Assembly (NCBI RefSeq): GCF_000725345.1
Contig: NZ_CP008852.1
Location: 2,199,693 to 2,263,692, forward strand
Length of the DNA: 64,000 bases
Direction: 5' to 3'
Source: Pelosinus sp. UFO1
GTDB lineage: Bacteria; Bacillota; Negativicutes; DSM-13327
The notes beneath the pieces were generated by a model that made no database searches, was not told the origin of the DNA, and saw only the letters and a list, made by a program, of their open reading frames with translations. The position numbers and the translations under genes are program-made. Of this stretch, positions 8,774 to 25,706 are shown piece after piece. Every line of letters begins with the position of its first letter. Within the stretch, counting starts at the first letter, position 1.

Positions 8774-8850
8774 CGGGGCGTAGCGCAGTTTGGTAGCGCA
8801 TTAGACTGGGGGTCTAAGGGTCGCAGGTTCAAATCCTGTCGCTCCGACCA
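8774..8850 (+). tRNA. tRNA-Pro (anticodon GGG)
   Basis: 77 nt including an encoded CCA. The acceptor arm CGGGGCG pairs with CGCTCCG (one G-U). The anticodon stem TTAGA/TCTAA encloses loop CTGGGGG, giving anticodon GGG. The T arm GCAGG-TTCAAAT-CCTGT is regular. C at position 1 is typical for bacterial proline tRNAs. Confidence 0.95.
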
Positions 8851-9379: not shown

Positions 9380-9408
9380 TTGACAGTAATATTACAGACT
9401 GTTACAAT
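9380..9408 (+). promoter_or_regulatory. Consensus promoter of the purine hydroxylase operon
   Basis: TTGACA (9380-9385), an exactly 17-bp spacer and TACAAT (9403-9408). The spacer contains the palindrome GTAATATTAC (9386-9395), which could also be an operator. Initiation would fall just before the purine aptamer. Confidence 0.8.
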
Positions 9409-9428
9409 AAATGCGTTAAGTAAATATA

Positions 9429-9497
9429 TTTCGTATAATTTTGGAGATATGGTCCAAAAGTTTCTACTGGCAACCGTTAAATTGCCTGTCTACGAGT
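9429..9497 (+). promoter_or_regulatory. Purine riboswitch aptamer, guanine-like variant
   Basis: The purine-aptamer layout is clear: TATAAT in J1/2, loop 2 GATATGG between TTTTGGA and TCCAAAA (P2), GTTTCTAC in J2/3, a P3 hairpin with loop CCGTTAAA, then CTACGAG closing P1 (TTCGTA with TACGAG). The residue equivalent to position 74 is C, as in guanine/hypoxanthine sensors rather than adenine sensors. Two oddities: the base before C74 is T instead of the usual A, and loop 3 has one extra T, with a T-T mismatch in P3. It lies between a consensus promoter and a molybdenum hydroxylase/purine permease operon. Confidence 0.88.
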
Positions 9498-9552
9498 GAA
9501 AGTGTACCTAAGGCTATACGGTGTATCGCTTACTATTTGCGTTTGCATATCC

Positions 9553-9668
9553 CTAATAACCATTGGACACAAGTGTTTTTAAACACTAACCGATAGGATA
9601 ATCCTTGGCGGGAAGGTTTCGCTCATTTTTCTATAAAGCGAACTTTCTTACTAGGGTTATTTTTTTTG
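9553..9668 (+). terminator. Riboswitch expression platform with long terminator hairpin
   Basis: A small hairpin (9572-9578 with 9581-9587) is followed by a long hairpin. In that long hairpin, ATAATCCT (9598-9605) pairs with AGGGTTAT (9653-9660) and inner segments around GTTTCGCT and AGCGAA also pair, with eight T residues after it. AATAACC at 9555-9561 can pair with GGTTATT at the terminator's 3' strand, so a competing antiterminator is possible. The switching scheme is inferred. Confidence 0.65.
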
Positions 9669-9717
9669 TCTAATACTTATTCCTTTATATACATTTTAAG
9701 CTTTGGGAGGTAGATGA

Positions 9718-10515
9718 ATGTTTACATTACTTAATTTGGTACAACCAGATACTATAGAGGCGGCATATAAAGCACTAGTTGAAAAAAGAAATAACATTGT
9801 TTTAGGTGGCTGTGCTTTTTTAAGAATGGGTTCGCAAAGAATTGGTACTGCAGTAGATCTTTCAAGACTTAATTTAAATTATATTGTAGAGCAAAATGAA
9901 TATGTCGAAGTAGGTGCAACAACAACATTTAGAGATATTGAAACAAATCCTCTTTTAAATCGGTATTTTAATGGAGTATTGCCAGAAGCCTTAAGCCAAA
10001 TAATAGGAATCCAATTTAGGAATACCGTTATGATTGGAGCAACCGTTTATTCCAAATATGGTTTTTCCGATTTACTAACTGCATTGCTAGCTTTAGATAC
10101 AGAAATAGAATTATACAAAGGTGGAAGAATGTCTCTAAAATCTTTCTTAGAGAATTCTTTTGAAAAAGATATATTGACAAGGATATTTATAAAAAAGAAT
10201 GAAAGAAAAGCCAATTATCAGCATTTGAGAAATTCCTGTAGTGATTATCCCATATTAAATGTTGCTGTTTCCAAATTAAATGATCAATGGAAAATCGTTG
10301 TAGGTGCTAGGCCACAACGAGCTATAATTGTTCAAAAGGCTTCTGAAGAAGTGGCGAATTTAGAGCTGAATAGTAAGAACATAGATAGGGTAGCTACTAT
10401 GGCTTCAAACGAAATTACTTTTGGAACTAATATGAGGGGTACAGCTGACTACCGAAAATCCATATGTAAAGTATTAGTAAAAAGAGCCATAATGGAGGTA
10501 TTGCAATGCAAATAG
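9718..10515 (+). CDS. Molybdenum hydroxylase FAD-binding subunit (XdhB/CoxM type)
   Basis: 265 residues, somewhat short for the family. The N-terminal FAD motif reads IVLGGCAFLRMG (about residues 27-38), and FRNTVMIGATVYSKYGFSDLL (near 100-120) corresponds to the second flavin loop, with TIGGNI reduced to MIGAT. This medium subunit passes electrons from the Fe-S clusters to FAD. GGGAGG precedes ATG 9718. It overlaps the 2Fe-2S subunit gene by 10 bp, so translation is probably coupled. Purine as substrate is inferred from the riboswitch and the permease. Confidence 0.88.
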   Translation: MFTLLNLVQPDTIEAAYKALVEKRNNIVLGGCAFLRMGSQRIGTAVDLSRLNLNYIVEQNEYVEVGATTTFRDIETNPLLNRYFNGVLPEALSQIIGIQFRNTVMIGATVYSKYGFSDLLTALLALDTEIELYKGGRMSLKSFLENSFEKDILTRIFIKKNERKANYQHLRNSCSDYPILNVAVSKLNDQWKIVVGARPQRAIIVQKASEEVANLELNSKNIDRVATMASNEITFGTNMRGTADYRKSICKVLVKRAIMEVLQCK

Positions 10516-10955
10516 AGGTTATTGTCAATTTGAAAAAAATCAAGATGGAAGTAGATGCTAATGAGTTCTTAGCTGATACATTAAGAAAATATGGAATATT
10601 AAGTGTCAGAAAAGGTTGTGATACAACCTGTTGTGGGCTTTGTACCGTATGGATAGATGATAAACCTACCTTGTCTTGTACCACACTCTCTTTTAGAGCG
10701 AATGGGAGAAAAATTACTACTATAGAAGGCGTTCATAAAGAGGCTAATGAATTTGCCCAGATACTTGTTGCAGAAGGTGCAGAGCAATGTGGCTTCTGTA
10801 GTCCCGGTTTTATTATGACTGTACTTGCGATGAAAAATGAGCTTACTAATCCAACTGAAGAAACGATAGTACATTATTTAACGGGTAACTTGTGTAGGTG
10901 TACAGGATATATGGGACAACTCAGAGCTATCAAGACCTATTTGGGGGTACTGTAA
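10506..10955 (+). CDS. Molybdenum hydroxylase 2Fe-2S subunit
   Basis: 149 residues with two Fe-S domains. The plant-ferredoxin-like cluster uses C-x4-C-G-x-C plus a later Cys (GCDTTCCGLC, PTLSC) around residues 38-60. The second, helical domain has CGFC and CRCTGY. There is one extra Cys beside the first motif. The subunit transfers electrons from the molybdenum centre to FAD. ATG 10506 lies inside the end of the FAD subunit gene, and the stop is directly followed by the large subunit ATG at 10957. Confidence 0.92.
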   Translation: MQIEVIVNLKKIKMEVDANEFLADTLRKYGILSVRKGCDTTCCGLCTVWIDDKPTLSCTTLSFRANGRKITTIEGVHKEANEFAQILVAEGAEQCGFCSPGFIMTVLAMKNELTNPTEETIVHYLTGNLCRCTGYMGQLRAIKTYLGVL

Positions 10956-10956
10956 G

Positions 10957-13245
10957 ATGAAGACCGTTGGTAAAGGTATTTCTAAGATTGATGGAATGAG
11001 TATTGCTACAGGTAAACCTGTCTATACAGAAGATTTGGCAATGGCCAATTGTTTGGTGGTAAAGCTGCTTAGAAGTCCCCATGCATTTGCAAGAATAAAC
11101 TCCATTGATACCACTATTGCAGAAAAGTTAGAAGGCGTTGAATGCATTCTAACATATAAGGATGTTCCTAAACAAAGATTTTCACTAGCTGGACAATCCT
11201 ACCCTGAACCTTCACCTTACGATCGACTAATCCTAGAAGAAGTAGTCAGATATATAGGAGACGAGGTCGCCATTATTGCAGCTGTAGATGAAAAGACAGC
11301 ATTAAAGGCTATGTCCTTGATAAAGGTTAAATATGAACTATTTGATCCTGTTTTAGATTTTGAAAAGGCTATAGGACATGCTTCAATCGTTCATGCTGAA
11401 AATGATGTTCACTGCAATTTTGATATTGGTATGAAAAAGGATTTGAATATTGTCTCCTCGCATAAGGTCGAAGTAGGAAATATAGATGAAGAAATAAAAA
11501 AATGTGACATAGTTGTTGAAGAAACTTATTATACTCAGGCAAATGCTCACGCAATGATGGAAACCTATCGGGCTTCTAGTTATTTAGATCACACGGGGAG
11601 ACTTGTAATCGTAAGTTCAACACAAATCCCTTTCCATGTCAGACGTCAGTTAGCAAAAGCTTTACAAATACCTGCTAGTAAAATAAGAGTTATTAAACCA
11701 AGAATTGGTGGAGGATTTGGCGGTAAGCAAACTTCAGCTGTTGAAATATTTACAGCGATTGTTACTCTGAAAACAGGAAAACCAGCAATTATTATATATG
11801 ACAGAAAAGAAACCTTTAGTTGCACTACCAGTCGTCATGCAATGAGACTATCGGTTAGATTGGGAGCCGATAGTAATGGGTATATCCGAGTTGTAGATAT
11901 TCAAGGTTTATCTGATACAGGAGCTTATGGAGAACACGCTTCTACGGTTTTTTCGGTAGTAGGGGATAAAACTCTTCCCTTATATAATAAAACAACGGCT
12001 GTTCGTTTTACGGGTAATGTTGTGTATACCAATAAAATGCCCGCTGGAGCATTTCGAGGCTATGGAGCTACGCAAGGTGCTTATGCATTAGAGTCAACAG
12101 TTAATTTACTAGCAGAAAAACTAGCTATGGATCCGACCGAAATTCGATTAATGAATTTAATAAAAGAAGGTGAAACATGCCTAACATATAACGGTAAACT
12201 GCTGGGAAGCTCCACATTACACAAGTGCATAGAAAAGGGTAAAGAGTTAATAGGCTGGAAAGAAAGATACCCTGCGCAACAAATTGACAAAAACAGAGTA
12301 AGGGCTATTGGTATGGCAGTTACTATGCAGGGATCAGGTATAGCTGGTATTGATACTGCATCAGCAGAAATACGACTTAACGACGACGGCAACTTTACCC
12401 TTCTCATCGGCTCTACAGATATGGGAACGGGCAGCGATACGATTTTGGCGCAAATGGCTGCCGAGATTTTAGAGATTCCCATAGAAAATATTATCGTTAA
12501 CGCTGCCGATACAGACATTTCTCCCTACGATCCAGGCTCGTATGCTTCAAGTACAACTTATGTTACAGGGATGGCTGTGGTACAAGCAGCGCAAGATTTA
12601 AAAAGGCAAATTATTGAAAGCGGTGCAAAGTTTCTAGAAGTTTCATCAGAGGAAGTAGAATTTGATGGAGAAACTATAAGTATGATCAAAGGAGAGGGAT
12701 CCGTTAGGCTTGAAAAACTAGCTGAATTTTTAGTTTTAGGAACGGGTAAACATCAACTAGTAGGTAATGCAACCTATGGAAGCCCCGTTTCGCCGCCACC
12801 ATTTATTGCTGGTTTTGCCGAAGTAGAGGTTGATAAAGAAACTGGAAAGATAGACTTAATAGATTTTGTAGCCGTGGTAGATTGTGGAACTGTTATAAAC
12901 CCCAAGTTAGCAAGGATTCAAGTAGAGGGCGGTATAGTTCAGGGCATTGGTATGGCACTCTATGAAGATGTGAAATTTGGGGATAAAGGAAAGCTACTGA
13001 CAAATACATTTATGCAGTACAAAATCCCCTGTAGAAAAGATATTGGAAATGTACAAGTTGCTTTTGAAGAAAGTTTTGAAAAGACAGGACCTTTTGGCGC
13101 AAAATCTATAGGTGAAGTAGTTATTAATACACCTGCACCAGCAATTGCACATGCAGTTTATAATGCAGTTGGTGTTAGGGTAACATCACTTCCAATTACT
13201 CCTGAAAAAGTATTTATGGGAATGCAGAATAGAATAAATTTCTAG
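10957..13245 (+). CDS. Molybdopterin-binding subunit, xanthine dehydrogenase family
   Basis: 762 residues, the usual size of the large subunit. Visible motifs are GGGFGGK (251-257), AGAFRGYGATQ with the active-site Arg (about 367), DMGTGSDT (near 488) and the catalytic Glu in GAKSIGE (720). It hydroxylates a heteroaromatic substrate at the Mo centre. The guanine-like riboswitch and NCS2 permease suggest hypoxanthine/xanthine or another purine, but nicotinate or related substrates cannot be excluded from sequence. No maturation gene (XdhC/YqeB-type) or cofactor gene lies nearby. Whether the enzyme carries selenium cannot be seen here. Confidence 0.9.
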   Translation: MKTVGKGISKIDGMSIATGKPVYTEDLAMANCLVVKLLRSPHAFARINSIDTTIAEKLEGVECILTYKDVPKQRFSLAGQSYPEPSPYDRLILEEVVRYIGDEVAIIAAVDEKTALKAMSLIKVKYELFDPVLDFEKAIGHASIVHAENDVHCNFDIGMKKDLNIVSSHKVEVGNIDEEIKKCDIVVEETYYTQANAHAMMETYRASSYLDHTGRLVIVSSTQIPFHVRRQLAKALQIPASKIRVIKPRIGGGFGGKQTSAVEIFTAIVTLKTGKPAIIIYDRKETFSCTTSRHAMRLSVRLGADSNGYIRVVDIQGLSDTGAYGEHASTVFSVVGDKTLPLYNKTTAVRFTGNVVYTNKMPAGAFRGYGATQGAYALESTVNLLAEKLAMDPTEIRLMNLIKEGETCLTYNGKLLGSSTLHKCIEKGKELIGWKERYPAQQIDKNRVRAIGMAVTMQGSGIAGIDTASAEIRLNDDGNFTLLIGSTDMGTGSDTILAQMAAEILEIPIENIIVNAADTDISPYDPGSYASSTTYVTGMAVVQAAQDLKRQIIESGAKFLEVSSEEVEFDGETISMIKGEGSVRLEKLAEFLVLGTGKHQLVGNATYGSPVSPPPFIAGFAEVEVDKETGKIDLIDFVAVVDCGTVINPKLARIQVEGGIVQGIGMALYEDVKFGDKGKLLTNTFMQYKIPCRKDIGNVQVAFEESFEKTGPFGAKSIGEVVINTPAPAIAHAVYNAVGVRVTSLPITPEKVFMGMQNRINF

Positions 13246-13314: not shown

Positions 13315-14685
13315 TTGGAAAACAAAAAAAACATTCATCCAGTAGACGAACTTATGCCTAAAGGGCAGTTATTTACTTACGGGCTACAACATGTAATGGC
13401 TATGTATGCTGGTTGTGTTGCTGTTCCTTTGATAATCGCCAATGCACTAAAATTAACCTCGGAACAATTGATTATTTTGATTAATTCCGATTTGTTTGTC
13501 GCAGGTATAGCAACGATTATTCAATCCTTGGGGCTATTAAATATGGGTATTAAAAGCCCCATAGTGCAAGGTGTTTCCTTTGCGGCTGTAGCACCAATGG
13601 TTTTGGTTGGGCAAAACGCTGGTGGACAAGTTCCCGGATTATTAGCGATTTTTGGTGCAACCATAGCTGCAGGTGTTATCAGCTATGCTATAAGTCCACT
13701 ATTTAGCCGGCTTATTCGTTTTTTTCCACCAGTAGTAACTGGTTCTATTATTACTTTGATTGGCATTTCATTATTACCAGTTGCCATACGGTGGGCAGGG
13801 GGGGGCATCCCTGGTACGCCTAATTTTGGTAGTATTCAATCCATTGGAATGGCATTTGCAGTATTAATGCTGGTTATTATACTATATCGGTACTTAAAAG
13901 GATTTTATAGTAACATAGCTGTACTGCTCGGATTAGTCATCGGTACTATAATTGCTATACCTTTGGGTATGGTTGATTTTTCTAAAGTTGAAAACGCGGC
14001 TTGGATTGGCTTGGTTCAGCCTTTTTACTTTGGTTGGCCTACATTTGATTTAGCTGGAATTGTTGCTCTGGTTATTGCAATGTTGGTTATTATGACAGAA
14101 ACAACAGGCGATTTTATTGCCGTTGGCGAAATTATTGGTAAGCCAGTAACTCAGCAGGATTTGACTAGAGGATTACGGGCAGACTCTTTTTCTACCATGC
14201 TTGGTGGTATCATGAATACGTTTCCTCACTCAGCCTTTGCCCAAAATGTTGGCCTTGTCAGCCTAACTAGAATTAAGAGCCGATATGTTGTTGTTGCCGC
14301 TGGAATGATTCTTGTTACATTAGGACTATTTCCTAAGGCTGCTGCTGTCGTCGCCTGCATCCCTACACCAGTACTTGGTGGTGCTGGAATTGCAATGTTT
14401 GGAATGGTTGCCGCAAGTGGCATTCGGGCTCTTACTGCCGTAAAATTTGAAGGTACACATAATGCCATGATTGTGGCAATAAGCATTGGAGTCGGATTAA
14501 TACCTCTAGCAGTGCCAAGTTTTTATCAAAACTTCCCTAAATGGGCTCAGGTAATTTTGCATAGCGGAATAACATCTGGTAGTATTTTAGCAATTGGTTT
14601 AAACTACTTCTTTAATGAATTAGGTAACAATACACAAAGTCCTAATGTTGTTACTACAAGATATGCACAAACGAAGAATGTTTAA
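13315..14685 (+). CDS. NCS2 uracil/xanthine permease
   Basis: 456 residues, strongly hydrophobic, consistent with the 14-segment UraA fold. Family signatures include QHVMAMYAG at the N-terminus, a GIKSPIVQG loop, MTETTGDF with the conserved acidic residue (near 258) and GGAGIAMFGMVAASGIR. It imports a nucleobase with protons. Its place as last gene of the riboswitch-led operon points to a purine such as xanthine or hypoxanthine. The TTG start 13315 follows AGGAG at 13301. Confidence 0.92.
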   Translation: MENKKNIHPVDELMPKGQLFTYGLQHVMAMYAGCVAVPLIIANALKLTSEQLIILINSDLFVAGIATIIQSLGLLNMGIKSPIVQGVSFAAVAPMVLVGQNAGGQVPGLLAIFGATIAAGVISYAISPLFSRLIRFFPPVVTGSIITLIGISLLPVAIRWAGGGIPGTPNFGSIQSIGMAFAVLMLVIILYRYLKGFYSNIAVLLGLVIGTIIAIPLGMVDFSKVENAAWIGLVQPFYFGWPTFDLAGIVALVIAMLVIMTETTGDFIAVGEIIGKPVTQQDLTRGLRADSFSTMLGGIMNTFPHSAFAQNVGLVSLTRIKSRYVVVAAGMILVTLGLFPKAAAVVACIPTPVLGGAGIAMFGMVAASGIRALTAVKFEGTHNAMIVAISIGVGLIPLAVPSFYQNFPKWAQVILHSGITSGSILAIGLNYFFNELGNNTQSPNVVTTRYAQTKNV

Positions 14686-25630: not shown

Positions 25631-25706
25631 TGGCAGGGGCAGCTGGACTCGAACCAACGGATGCGGGAGTCAAAGTCCCGTGCCTTACCAACTTGGCTAT
25701 GCCCCT
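25631..25706 (-). tRNA. tRNA-Gln (anticodon TTG)
   Basis: 76 nt with encoded CCA on the minus strand. The acceptor arm AGGGGCA pairs with TGCCCCT; the anticodon stem CGGGA/TCCCG surrounds loop CTTTGAC, giving anticodon TTG. The D arm begins ATAGCCAAG, typical of glutamine tRNAs. It is convergent with xylFGH. Confidence 0.95.

What the first reader, a model, noticed from the sequence alone, without database searches (positions are those of the whole stretch)
9380..9717. Variant purine riboswitch in front of a molybdenum hydroxylase operon
The aptamer is recognisable with C at position 74, but the base normally A at position 73 is T, loop 3 has an extra T and P3 carries a mismatch. Guanine riboswitches usually govern synthesis and transport, not oxidation. 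The leader also has a long terminator and a possible antiterminator. The ligand could be altered (hypoxanthine, xanthine or another purine), or the switch could turn the operon on.
Basis: partly seen in the sequence, partly recalled or inferred. Interest (0 to 1): 0.65.

Follow-up and report, generated by a model that had tools for sequence, protein, structure and literature searches.

The report
Guanine switch with decayed PRPP half
An RNA switch that most likely senses guanine sits in front of genes for a xanthine-dehydrogenase-like enzyme and a xanthine permease, and it descends from a known two-signal RNA switch whose second sensor appears to have decayed.

Summary
The aptamer is real (Rfam RF00167, 68.9 bits, cut-off 37). 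So are its odd bases: U at 73, a longer L3, a broken P3 pair. They do not point to a new ligand. U22, U47, U51 and C74 are kept. U73 also occurs before ordinary guanine genes (NCS2 permease, purE, guaA, guaB) in other Firmicutes and before xpt in this genome and other Negativicutes. Aptamers that fit published xanthine-II and guanine-II look different.

A model of the PRPP half matches at 49.8 bits (E 1e-12), but bases matching PRPP-contacting G48 and C75 are gone, and against a relative this half is 66% identical while the guanine half is 97%.

Folding shows an antiterminator (9494-9501/9617-9624) that excludes both P1 and the terminator, so guanine should switch the operon OFF. A guanine aptamer also precedes a homologous operon in a second family. 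The genome's purine-degradation cluster has none. I read it as a guanine-repressed xanthine-supply operon beside xpt-pbuX. No binding was tested.

The parts
9380..9408 (+). promoter, TTGACA-17-TACAAT with TG before the -10
   Evidence: consensus scan, 11 of 12 matches; start of transcription near 9415 is inferred
9430..9496 (+). guanine aptamer core: P1 9430-9435/9491-9496, P2 9439-9445/9453-9459, J2/3 9460-9467, P3 9469-9473/9482-9486, L3 9474-9481, J3/1 UGUC 9487-9490 with U73 = 9489 and C74 = 9490
   Evidence: RF00167 68.9 bits over 9411-9512; pairs read
9494..9501 (+). 5' strand of the antiterminator (old P0 of the PRPP half), overlaps the 3' strand of P1
   Evidence: helix probability 0.94 in the RNA up to 9636; the same 8-bp helix can form in 24 of 24 related leaders, picked with a pattern that asks for its letters
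9494..9624 (+). decayed PRPP (ykkC-type) half of a former guanine-PRPP tandem
   Evidence: own covariance model R1, 49.8 bits, E 1e-12 (locus L004); no Rfam ykkC match in the window
9617..9624 (+). UUUCGCUC, 3' strand of the antiterminator and part of the terminator 5' arm
9599..9667 (+). intrinsic terminator: stem about 9599-9659, U tract to 9667
   Evidence: fold, -22.2 kcal/mol for 9597-9667
9718..10515 (+). XdhB-like FAD subunit
   Evidence: PF00941, PF03450; best NCBIfam 96.6 bits, below its cut-off of 350
10506..10955 (+). XdhC-like [2Fe-2S] subunit
   Evidence: NF043084 138.8 bits, cut-off 217
10957..13245 (+). XdhA-like molybdenum subunit
   Evidence: NF043082 670.1 bits, cut-off 780
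13315..14685 (+). PbuX-family xanthine permease
   Evidence: TIGR03173 532.7 bits, cut-off 414.15

Best explanation
The leader is a guanine-responsive transcription-termination (OFF) riboswitch that descends from a guanine-PRPP tandem riboswitch. Without guanine, the 3' strand of P1 and the next bases (GAGUGAAA, 9494-9501) pair with UUUCGCUC (9617-9624). This is the old P0 helix of the PRPP half; it holds the 5' arm of the terminator, so the operon is read. When guanine binds, P1 forms, GAG is taken, UUUCGCU is freed and the terminator stops transcription. The PRPP half has lost bases that hold PRPP and now serves mainly as the antiterminator scaffold. The operon (xdh-like enzyme and xanthine permease) would supply xanthine to the xanthine phosphoribosyltransferase (xpt) route to GMP and is shut off, like xpt-pbuX, when guanine is plentiful. 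Shown by computation: the aptamer, the homology to the tandem, the mutually exclusive helices, the repeated link to xdh. Inferred: ligand identity, direction in the cell, enzyme substrate, physiological role.
For: RF00167 match and intact core. U73 or UGUC before xpt in the same genome and in families f148 and f161, and before a permease in f170. Tandem ancestry: Rfam ykkC matches (below cut-off) behind the guanine aptamer in 5 of 11 related loci; R1 model. Decay: for the same pair of genomes (own and G007), guanine half / PRPP half / terminator part identity is 97/66/79% for the xdh leader against 100/92/87% for the permease leader; G48 and C75 motifs lost in 3 of 3 xdh leaders. Switch: antiterminator probability 0.94 and P1 0.00 up to 9636, antiterminator 0.00 and terminator 0.69 from 9650. 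Link to xdh: RF00167 over cut-off directly upstream in 5 of 30 xdhB loci, in two families, with xdhA and pbuX following in the second family. Separate purine-degradation cluster without RF00167.
Against: No binding, transcription or expression data. Only 5 of 30 xdhB loci have the aptamer over cut-off; 25 do not, among them both genomes of the sister genus. The XdhA-like protein is below the equivalog cut-off, so its substrate is not known. The complete RNA prefers the terminator even without ligand, so the ON state must be kinetic. The xpt leaders' PRPP half also drifts (75% own against G007), so drift is not special to xdh. The antiterminator helix alone is reached by 955 of 20,000 shuffles.
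Confidence: 0.7

Rival explanations
1. The aptamer has shifted to xanthine, hypoxanthine or another oxidised purine through U73 and the longer J3/1, and controls its own catabolic operon.
For: The gene is xdh-like, an association published for xanthine-II (PMC9295807). J3/1 is longer than in guanine-I. The common guanine pocket discriminates only about 10-fold against hypoxanthine and xanthine (PMC9295807), so cross-response in cells is possible.
Against: U51 and C74 are kept; U73 goes with ordinary guanine genes in 25 of 26 readable cases, xdhB being the other; the aptamers that fit xanthine-II have G51 and CCAGGC; the same UGUC stands before xpt; predicted logic is OFF.
Confidence: 0.1
2. 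The tandem is still a two-input gate: the changed second half binds PRPP or another ligand and overrides guanine.
For: The ykkC-like junction (P0, P1, P2, P3) still forms in the predicted fold of the RNA up to 9636; R1 still matches at 49.8 bits; G96 and the flanking conserved stretch are kept.
Against: Bases matching G48 and C75 are lost in 3 of 3 xdh leaders; L023 has lost the P2 hairpin; 66% identity against 92% for the permease leader of the same pair of genomes; in genus g317 the half is absent.
Confidence: 0.13
3. The leader is a dead relic that only attenuates.
For: Remnants without an intact aptamer are seen by eye before xdhB in L168, L178 and L188.
Against: The guanine half is 97% identical to that of L023 while the rest of the leader is 66-79%; promoter, antiterminator and terminator are intact.
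Confidence: 0.05

Closest known systems
Guanine-PRPP tandem riboswitch (IMPLY gate), Sherlock et al. 2018, PMC5912903
   Same: guanine aptamer directly followed by a ykkC-type half and one terminator; P0 strand next to guanine P1
   Different: PRPP-contacting bases lost; xdh and xanthine permease genes instead of purine synthesis or codA
Guanine-I riboswitch (RF00167, xpt type)
   Same: U22, U47, U51, C74, L2-L3 motifs; OFF logic with a terminator; before xpt and permeases in relatives
   Different: U73 with one extra base in J3/1, 54-72 pair lost, L3 longer by one, xdh-like genes
Guanine-II riboswitch, Hamal Dhakal et al. 2022, PMC9295807
   Same: U51 kept, same P3 sequence, one more base on the J2/3 side
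   Different: J3/1 is UGUC, not CCAGGC; predicted OFF, not ON; not before a phosphoribosyltransferase
Xanthine-II riboswitch, PMC9295807
   Same: associated with purine-oxidation genes, xanthine dehydrogenase among them
   Different: window has U51 not G51, no two-base J2/3 insertion, predicted OFF

Membership tests
Purine riboswitch RF00167 (guanine type) | score over the curated cut-off | tested here: met
   68.9 bits, cut-off 37
Purine riboswitch RF00167 (guanine type) | pocket U22, U47, U51, C74 and G-G/C-C loop contact | tested here: met
   read in the alignment
Purine riboswitch RF00167 (guanine type) | binds guanine | not testable with these tools
   needs in-line probing
Guanine-II | U51 kept | tested here: met
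Guanine-II | one-base insertion in J2-3 | tested here: inconclusive
   U9468 is either an unpaired P3 base or an insertion
Guanine-II | long J3-1 insertion as in the two aptamers that fit it (CCAGGC) | tested here: not met
   UGUC in the window; L136 and L143 have CCAGGC
Guanine-II | phosphoribosyltransferase gene, ON logic | tested here: not met
   xdh-like gene, OFF predicted by folding
Xanthine-II | U51G and two-base J2-3 insertion | tested here: not met
   U51 and GUUUCUACU; compare L130, L142, L144-L146
Adenine riboswitch | U74 | tested here: not met
   C74 = C9490
Guanine-PRPP tandem riboswitch | homologous ykkC-type half directly behind the guanine aptamer | tested here: met
   R1 49.8 bits, E 1e-12; but no Rfam ykkC match in the window
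Guanine-PRPP tandem riboswitch | PRPP-contacting G48, C75 (and G96) present | tested here: not met
   G48 and C75 motifs lost, G96 kept (numbering by motif from PMC6031431)
Guanine-PRPP tandem riboswitch | PRPP overrides guanine | not testable with these tools
   needs a transcription assay

The most novel reading that the evidence does not exclude
The second half is not dead but re-specialised: a new ykkC-type aptamer that has lost PRPP and senses another purine-pathway compound, so that the leader is a two-input gate weighing guanine against that compound for control of purine oxidation.
Probability: 0.1. Interest if true: 0.75.

Novelty: new variant of a known kind. Interest (0 to 1): 0.42.

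Why it matters
It shows, in living relatives, what looks like a natural RNA logic gate falling back to one input: intact-looking guanine-PRPP leaders before the permease, partly changed ones before xpt, a decayed second half before xdh, and a compact guanine-only switch before xdh in another family. It also puts a purine-oxidising operon under guanine control, which would make sense if the enzyme feeds xanthine to xanthine phosphoribosyltransferase rather than burning purines. It warns that an unusual J3/1 base is not by itself a sign of a new ligand.

Tried and rejected
Altered ligand from U73: rejected as the main reading, because U73 recurs before ordinary guanine genes and 73 varies: 20 A, 5 U and 3 G among the 28 Negativicutes loci L194-L221 printed (one search found 33 matches; L011 and L013, both A73, were printed elsewhere, 3 got no locus and were not read), and A, G or U among Paenibacillaceae (39 of the 40 matches read). 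Sequencing error: rejected.

Guanine-II membership: considered seriously because P3 is identical; rejected on J3/1, direction and gene. The first batch of Paenibacillaceae loci, 20 chosen mostly by length, showed only A73 in the 18 that my pattern printed; the variants came from a second look.

Rfam alone did not show the PRPP half in the window (beside Purine, only chance-like matches such as mir-980). It appeared in sister leaders and then with the own model R1. R1 rests on 7 closely related sequences, so its E-values lean on this family. Of the 29 matches, three weak ones (second L199 match, L168, L209; E 0.1-0.21) were dropped; L178, L184 and L187 gave none.

I first thought that loss of G104/G105 in xpt leaders marked decay. 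Permease leaders that look intact also vary there, so I dropped that argument.

The antiterminator helix alone is not improbable: 955 of 20,000 shuffles reach 8 pairs. Its recurrence is better evidence, but the 24 leaders were found with a pattern that asks for its letters. In one search I set P2 in the wrong register; one search replaces it.

The strict U73 pattern over 398 phylum genomes hit only the own genome; it demands one sequence of L2 and J2/3 and misses others. A plasmid search found nothing. HMM scan of a 79-residue piece of the gene behind the guanine-II-like aptamer found no NCBIfam family; the longer frame gave Pfam Pribosyltran.

Full report
WHERE IT IS. The window lies in a single-contig 5.1 Mb Pelosinus genome (genus inferred from the named relatives). 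A published purine aptamer at 1401846-1401911 of Pelosinus sp. UFO1 (PMC4521916 Table 1; passages seen) falls inside one of the own-genome hits, 1401832-1401931, so the genome is almost certainly that strain.

THE OBSERVATION. RF00167 matches 9411-9512 at 68.9 bits. J1/2 UAA, L2 with AUAUGG, J2/3 GUUUCUAC and C74 are standard. P3 is GGCAA/UUGCC with an 8-base L3 (CCGUUAAA).

THE ODD BASES ARE OLD AND SHARED. The genome has four RF00167 hits. L001, before an NCS2-type permease gene (read by eye), has A73. L002 and L003, before xpt, and the window have U73 (the L002 gene is xanthine phosphoribosyltransferase by HMM). Across 8 Pelosinus genomes, 14 of 22 aptamers have U73 and 8 have A73. UGUC also stands before xpt in families f148 and f161 and before a permease in f170 (genes read by eye). 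A scan of the genome-contig collection for the core with TCTA gave 48 stretches. By eye 29 are true U73; in the other 19 TCTA lies inside P3 or, in L052, the match is not clearly an aptamer. Of the 29, 26 have a readable first gene: 14 NCS2-type permeases (4 of them from Clostridioides difficile strains), 3 purE, 1 guaA, 1 guaB, 6 xpt and 1 xdhB-like, the last in Pelosinus (five checked by HMM, the others read by eye). U73 therefore goes mostly with ordinary guanine genes. In the 4FEO structure the listed ligand contacts are C74, U51, A21, U22, A52 and U75, not 73 (PMC13374515 passages).

COMPARISON WITH KNOWN VARIANTS. From PMC9295807 (parts 1-4 of 6 read): xanthine-II has U51G, a two-base J2-3 insertion and a J3-1 insertion; guanine-II keeps U51, with a one-base J2-3 insertion and the other variations; both are described as ON switches. 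Xanthine-II-like: L130, L142, L144, L145, L146, with GUUUCGACCA, GGCAACCGUAAAUUGCC (small changes in some) and CCAGGC; L130 precedes an amidohydrolase and L142 a Rieske oxygenase. Guanine-II-like: L136, L143, with GUUUCUACA, the same P3 and CCAGGC; L143 precedes a phosphoribosyltransferase-domain gene. The window (GUUUCUACU, GGCAACCGUUAAAUUGCC, UGUC) is neither. The xdh aptamers of genus g317 in L159 and L161 (GUUUCUACA, GGCAACCGUAAAUUGCC, GGC) lack only CCA in this stretch compared with the guanine-II-like ones. These look like a continuum of guanine aptamers. The guanine-II structure paper (PMC12445698) was not held; I saw only its citation and one paragraph about it in PMC13374515.

THE MISSED HALF. 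In sister leaders, Rfam's Guanidine-I (ykkC) model matches directly behind the guanine aptamer at 34-57 bits (below its cut-off of 63) in 5 of 11 loci scanned: L001, L003, L010, L011 and L013. This is the architecture of the guanine-PRPP tandem riboswitch (PMC5912903: outline, abstract, passages and sections 4, 6, 7 and 9), in which guanine turns genes off and PRPP overrides it. A covariance model from 7 such leaders (R1) matches the window leader (locus L004) at 49.8 bits, its relatives L024 at 61.9 and L023 at 40.1, and xpt leaders at 39.7-102.3. At the bases that hold PRPP (PMC6031431 passages; my numbering is by motif) the window keeps the GAAAG start, G96 and the AAGG end, but AAGUG (with G48) has become AUUG and ACACC (with C75) has become AACC. 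L024 has AAACC. L023 has also lost the P2 hairpin. For one and the same pair of genomes, own and G007, identity of guanine half, PRPP half and terminator part is 97, 66 and 79% in the xdh leader, 100, 75 and 90% in an xpt leader, and 100, 92 and 87% in the permease leader. L004 and L024 are close relatives (98, 92 and 100%) and say little. L045, from a named Pelosinus MAG, is identical to L023 over the compared leader and is not counted apart.

HOW IT WORKS. Folding of the growing RNA: up to 9636 the helix 9494-9501/9617-9624 has probability 0.94 and P1 0.00. From 9650 on this helix is at 0.00 and the terminator at 0.69. The helix uses part of the 3' strand of P1 (9494-9496) and of the 5' arm of the terminator, so P1 and antiterminator cannot coexist. 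Guanine binding favours P1 and so termination. Without ligand the complete RNA also prefers the terminator, so the ON state must be kinetic, as is usual for such switches (general knowledge). The pseudoknot and ligand energies are not in the model.

HOW WIDE IS THE LINK TO XDH. XdhA orthologues occur in 3 of 8 Pelosinus genomes (100, 99 and 85% identity; the other homologues found have 38% or less), the same three that carry this aptamer; two of the five others are only 83-85% complete. In 200 genomes of the class, 75 have an xdhB homologue at E 1e-35. Of the 30 with a locus, the best-scoring ones and the window's own among them, 5 have an RF00167 match over cut-off directly upstream: the window, L165 and L186 in Pelosinus, and L184 and L187 in genus g317 of another family. 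By eye three more show remnants: L188 (P3 and J2/3), L168 (aptamer cut off inside J2/3 and fused to the end of the PRPP half) and L178 (end of the PRPP half and terminator). In g317 the PRPP half is gone and a compact terminator follows; XdhB there is 51% identical to the window's, and XdhA-like and PbuX-family genes follow. Both genomes of the sister genus carry the gene without an RF00167 match (L166, L167). I read this as an old tandem before xdh that has been worn down or lost several times; independent capture from xpt leaders is not excluded.

WHAT IT CONTROLS. The genes are XdhB-, XdhC- and XdhA-like subunits, all below NCBIfam's equivalog cut-offs, and a PbuX-family permease above its cut-off. 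The permease follows also in L222, L223, L224 and L227; no such gene was seen right behind xdhA in L225 and L226. Elsewhere the genome has a purine-degradation cluster (2.005-2.037 Mb) with an XdhA and a selenium-dependent XDH well over their cut-offs, adenine deaminase, SsnA, YgfK, YgeY, a dihydropyrimidinase-family enzyme, carbamate kinase and another PbuX. None of the four RF00167 hits lies there. So degradation has its own cluster without this switch. The guanine-controlled operon fits better with xpt-pbuX as a xanthine-supply route to GMP. This last step is inference.

LITERATURE. Open-licence full text only. Riboswitch with xanthine dehydrogenase and guanine riboswitch: one paper, PMC9295807. 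Pelosinus with riboswitch: three papers, of which I read passages of PMC4521916 only. Three of PRPP riboswitch, guanine aptamer, xpt, xanthine: two papers, seen in the listing only. In PMC5912903 the word xanthine does not occur in the main text. In these searches I found no report of a guanine or guanine-PRPP leader before xdh genes; subscription papers and supplements were not searched.

VERDICT. A real, slightly unusual guanine riboswitch; ligand most likely guanine; direction most likely OFF; its PRPP partner decayed. New variant of a known kind, of moderate interest.

Noticed in passing
L155, L156, L157, L214 (xpt leaders of other Negativicutes): Guanine aptamer with UGUC followed by a ykkC-type half that keeps G48 and C75 motifs but has other letters where G104/G105 stand; permease leaders vary there too. 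Could be checked for PRPP or another ligand.
   Followed up: partly
G000:C1 2005000-2037000 (L228, L229): Purine-degradation cluster with selenium-dependent XDH, XdhA, SsnA, YgfK, YgeY, adenine deaminase and PbuX in the same genome.
   Followed up: partly
L002 1049-1132 (-): Sub-threshold c-di-GMP-II riboswitch match (38.2 bits, cut-off 53.5) upstream of the xpt leader.
   Followed up: no
L159 and L161 against L136 and L143: The xdh aptamers of genus g317 differ from the guanine-II-like aptamers in J2/3 to J3/1 only by the lack of CCA; possible intermediates between guanine-I and guanine-II.
   Followed up: partly
L168, before xdhB in genome G567: A fusion of the start of a guanine aptamer with the end of the PRPP half and terminator, the middle missing.
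   Followed up: no
window 8774-8847 (+) and 25634-25706 (-): Two tRNA genes.
   Followed up: no
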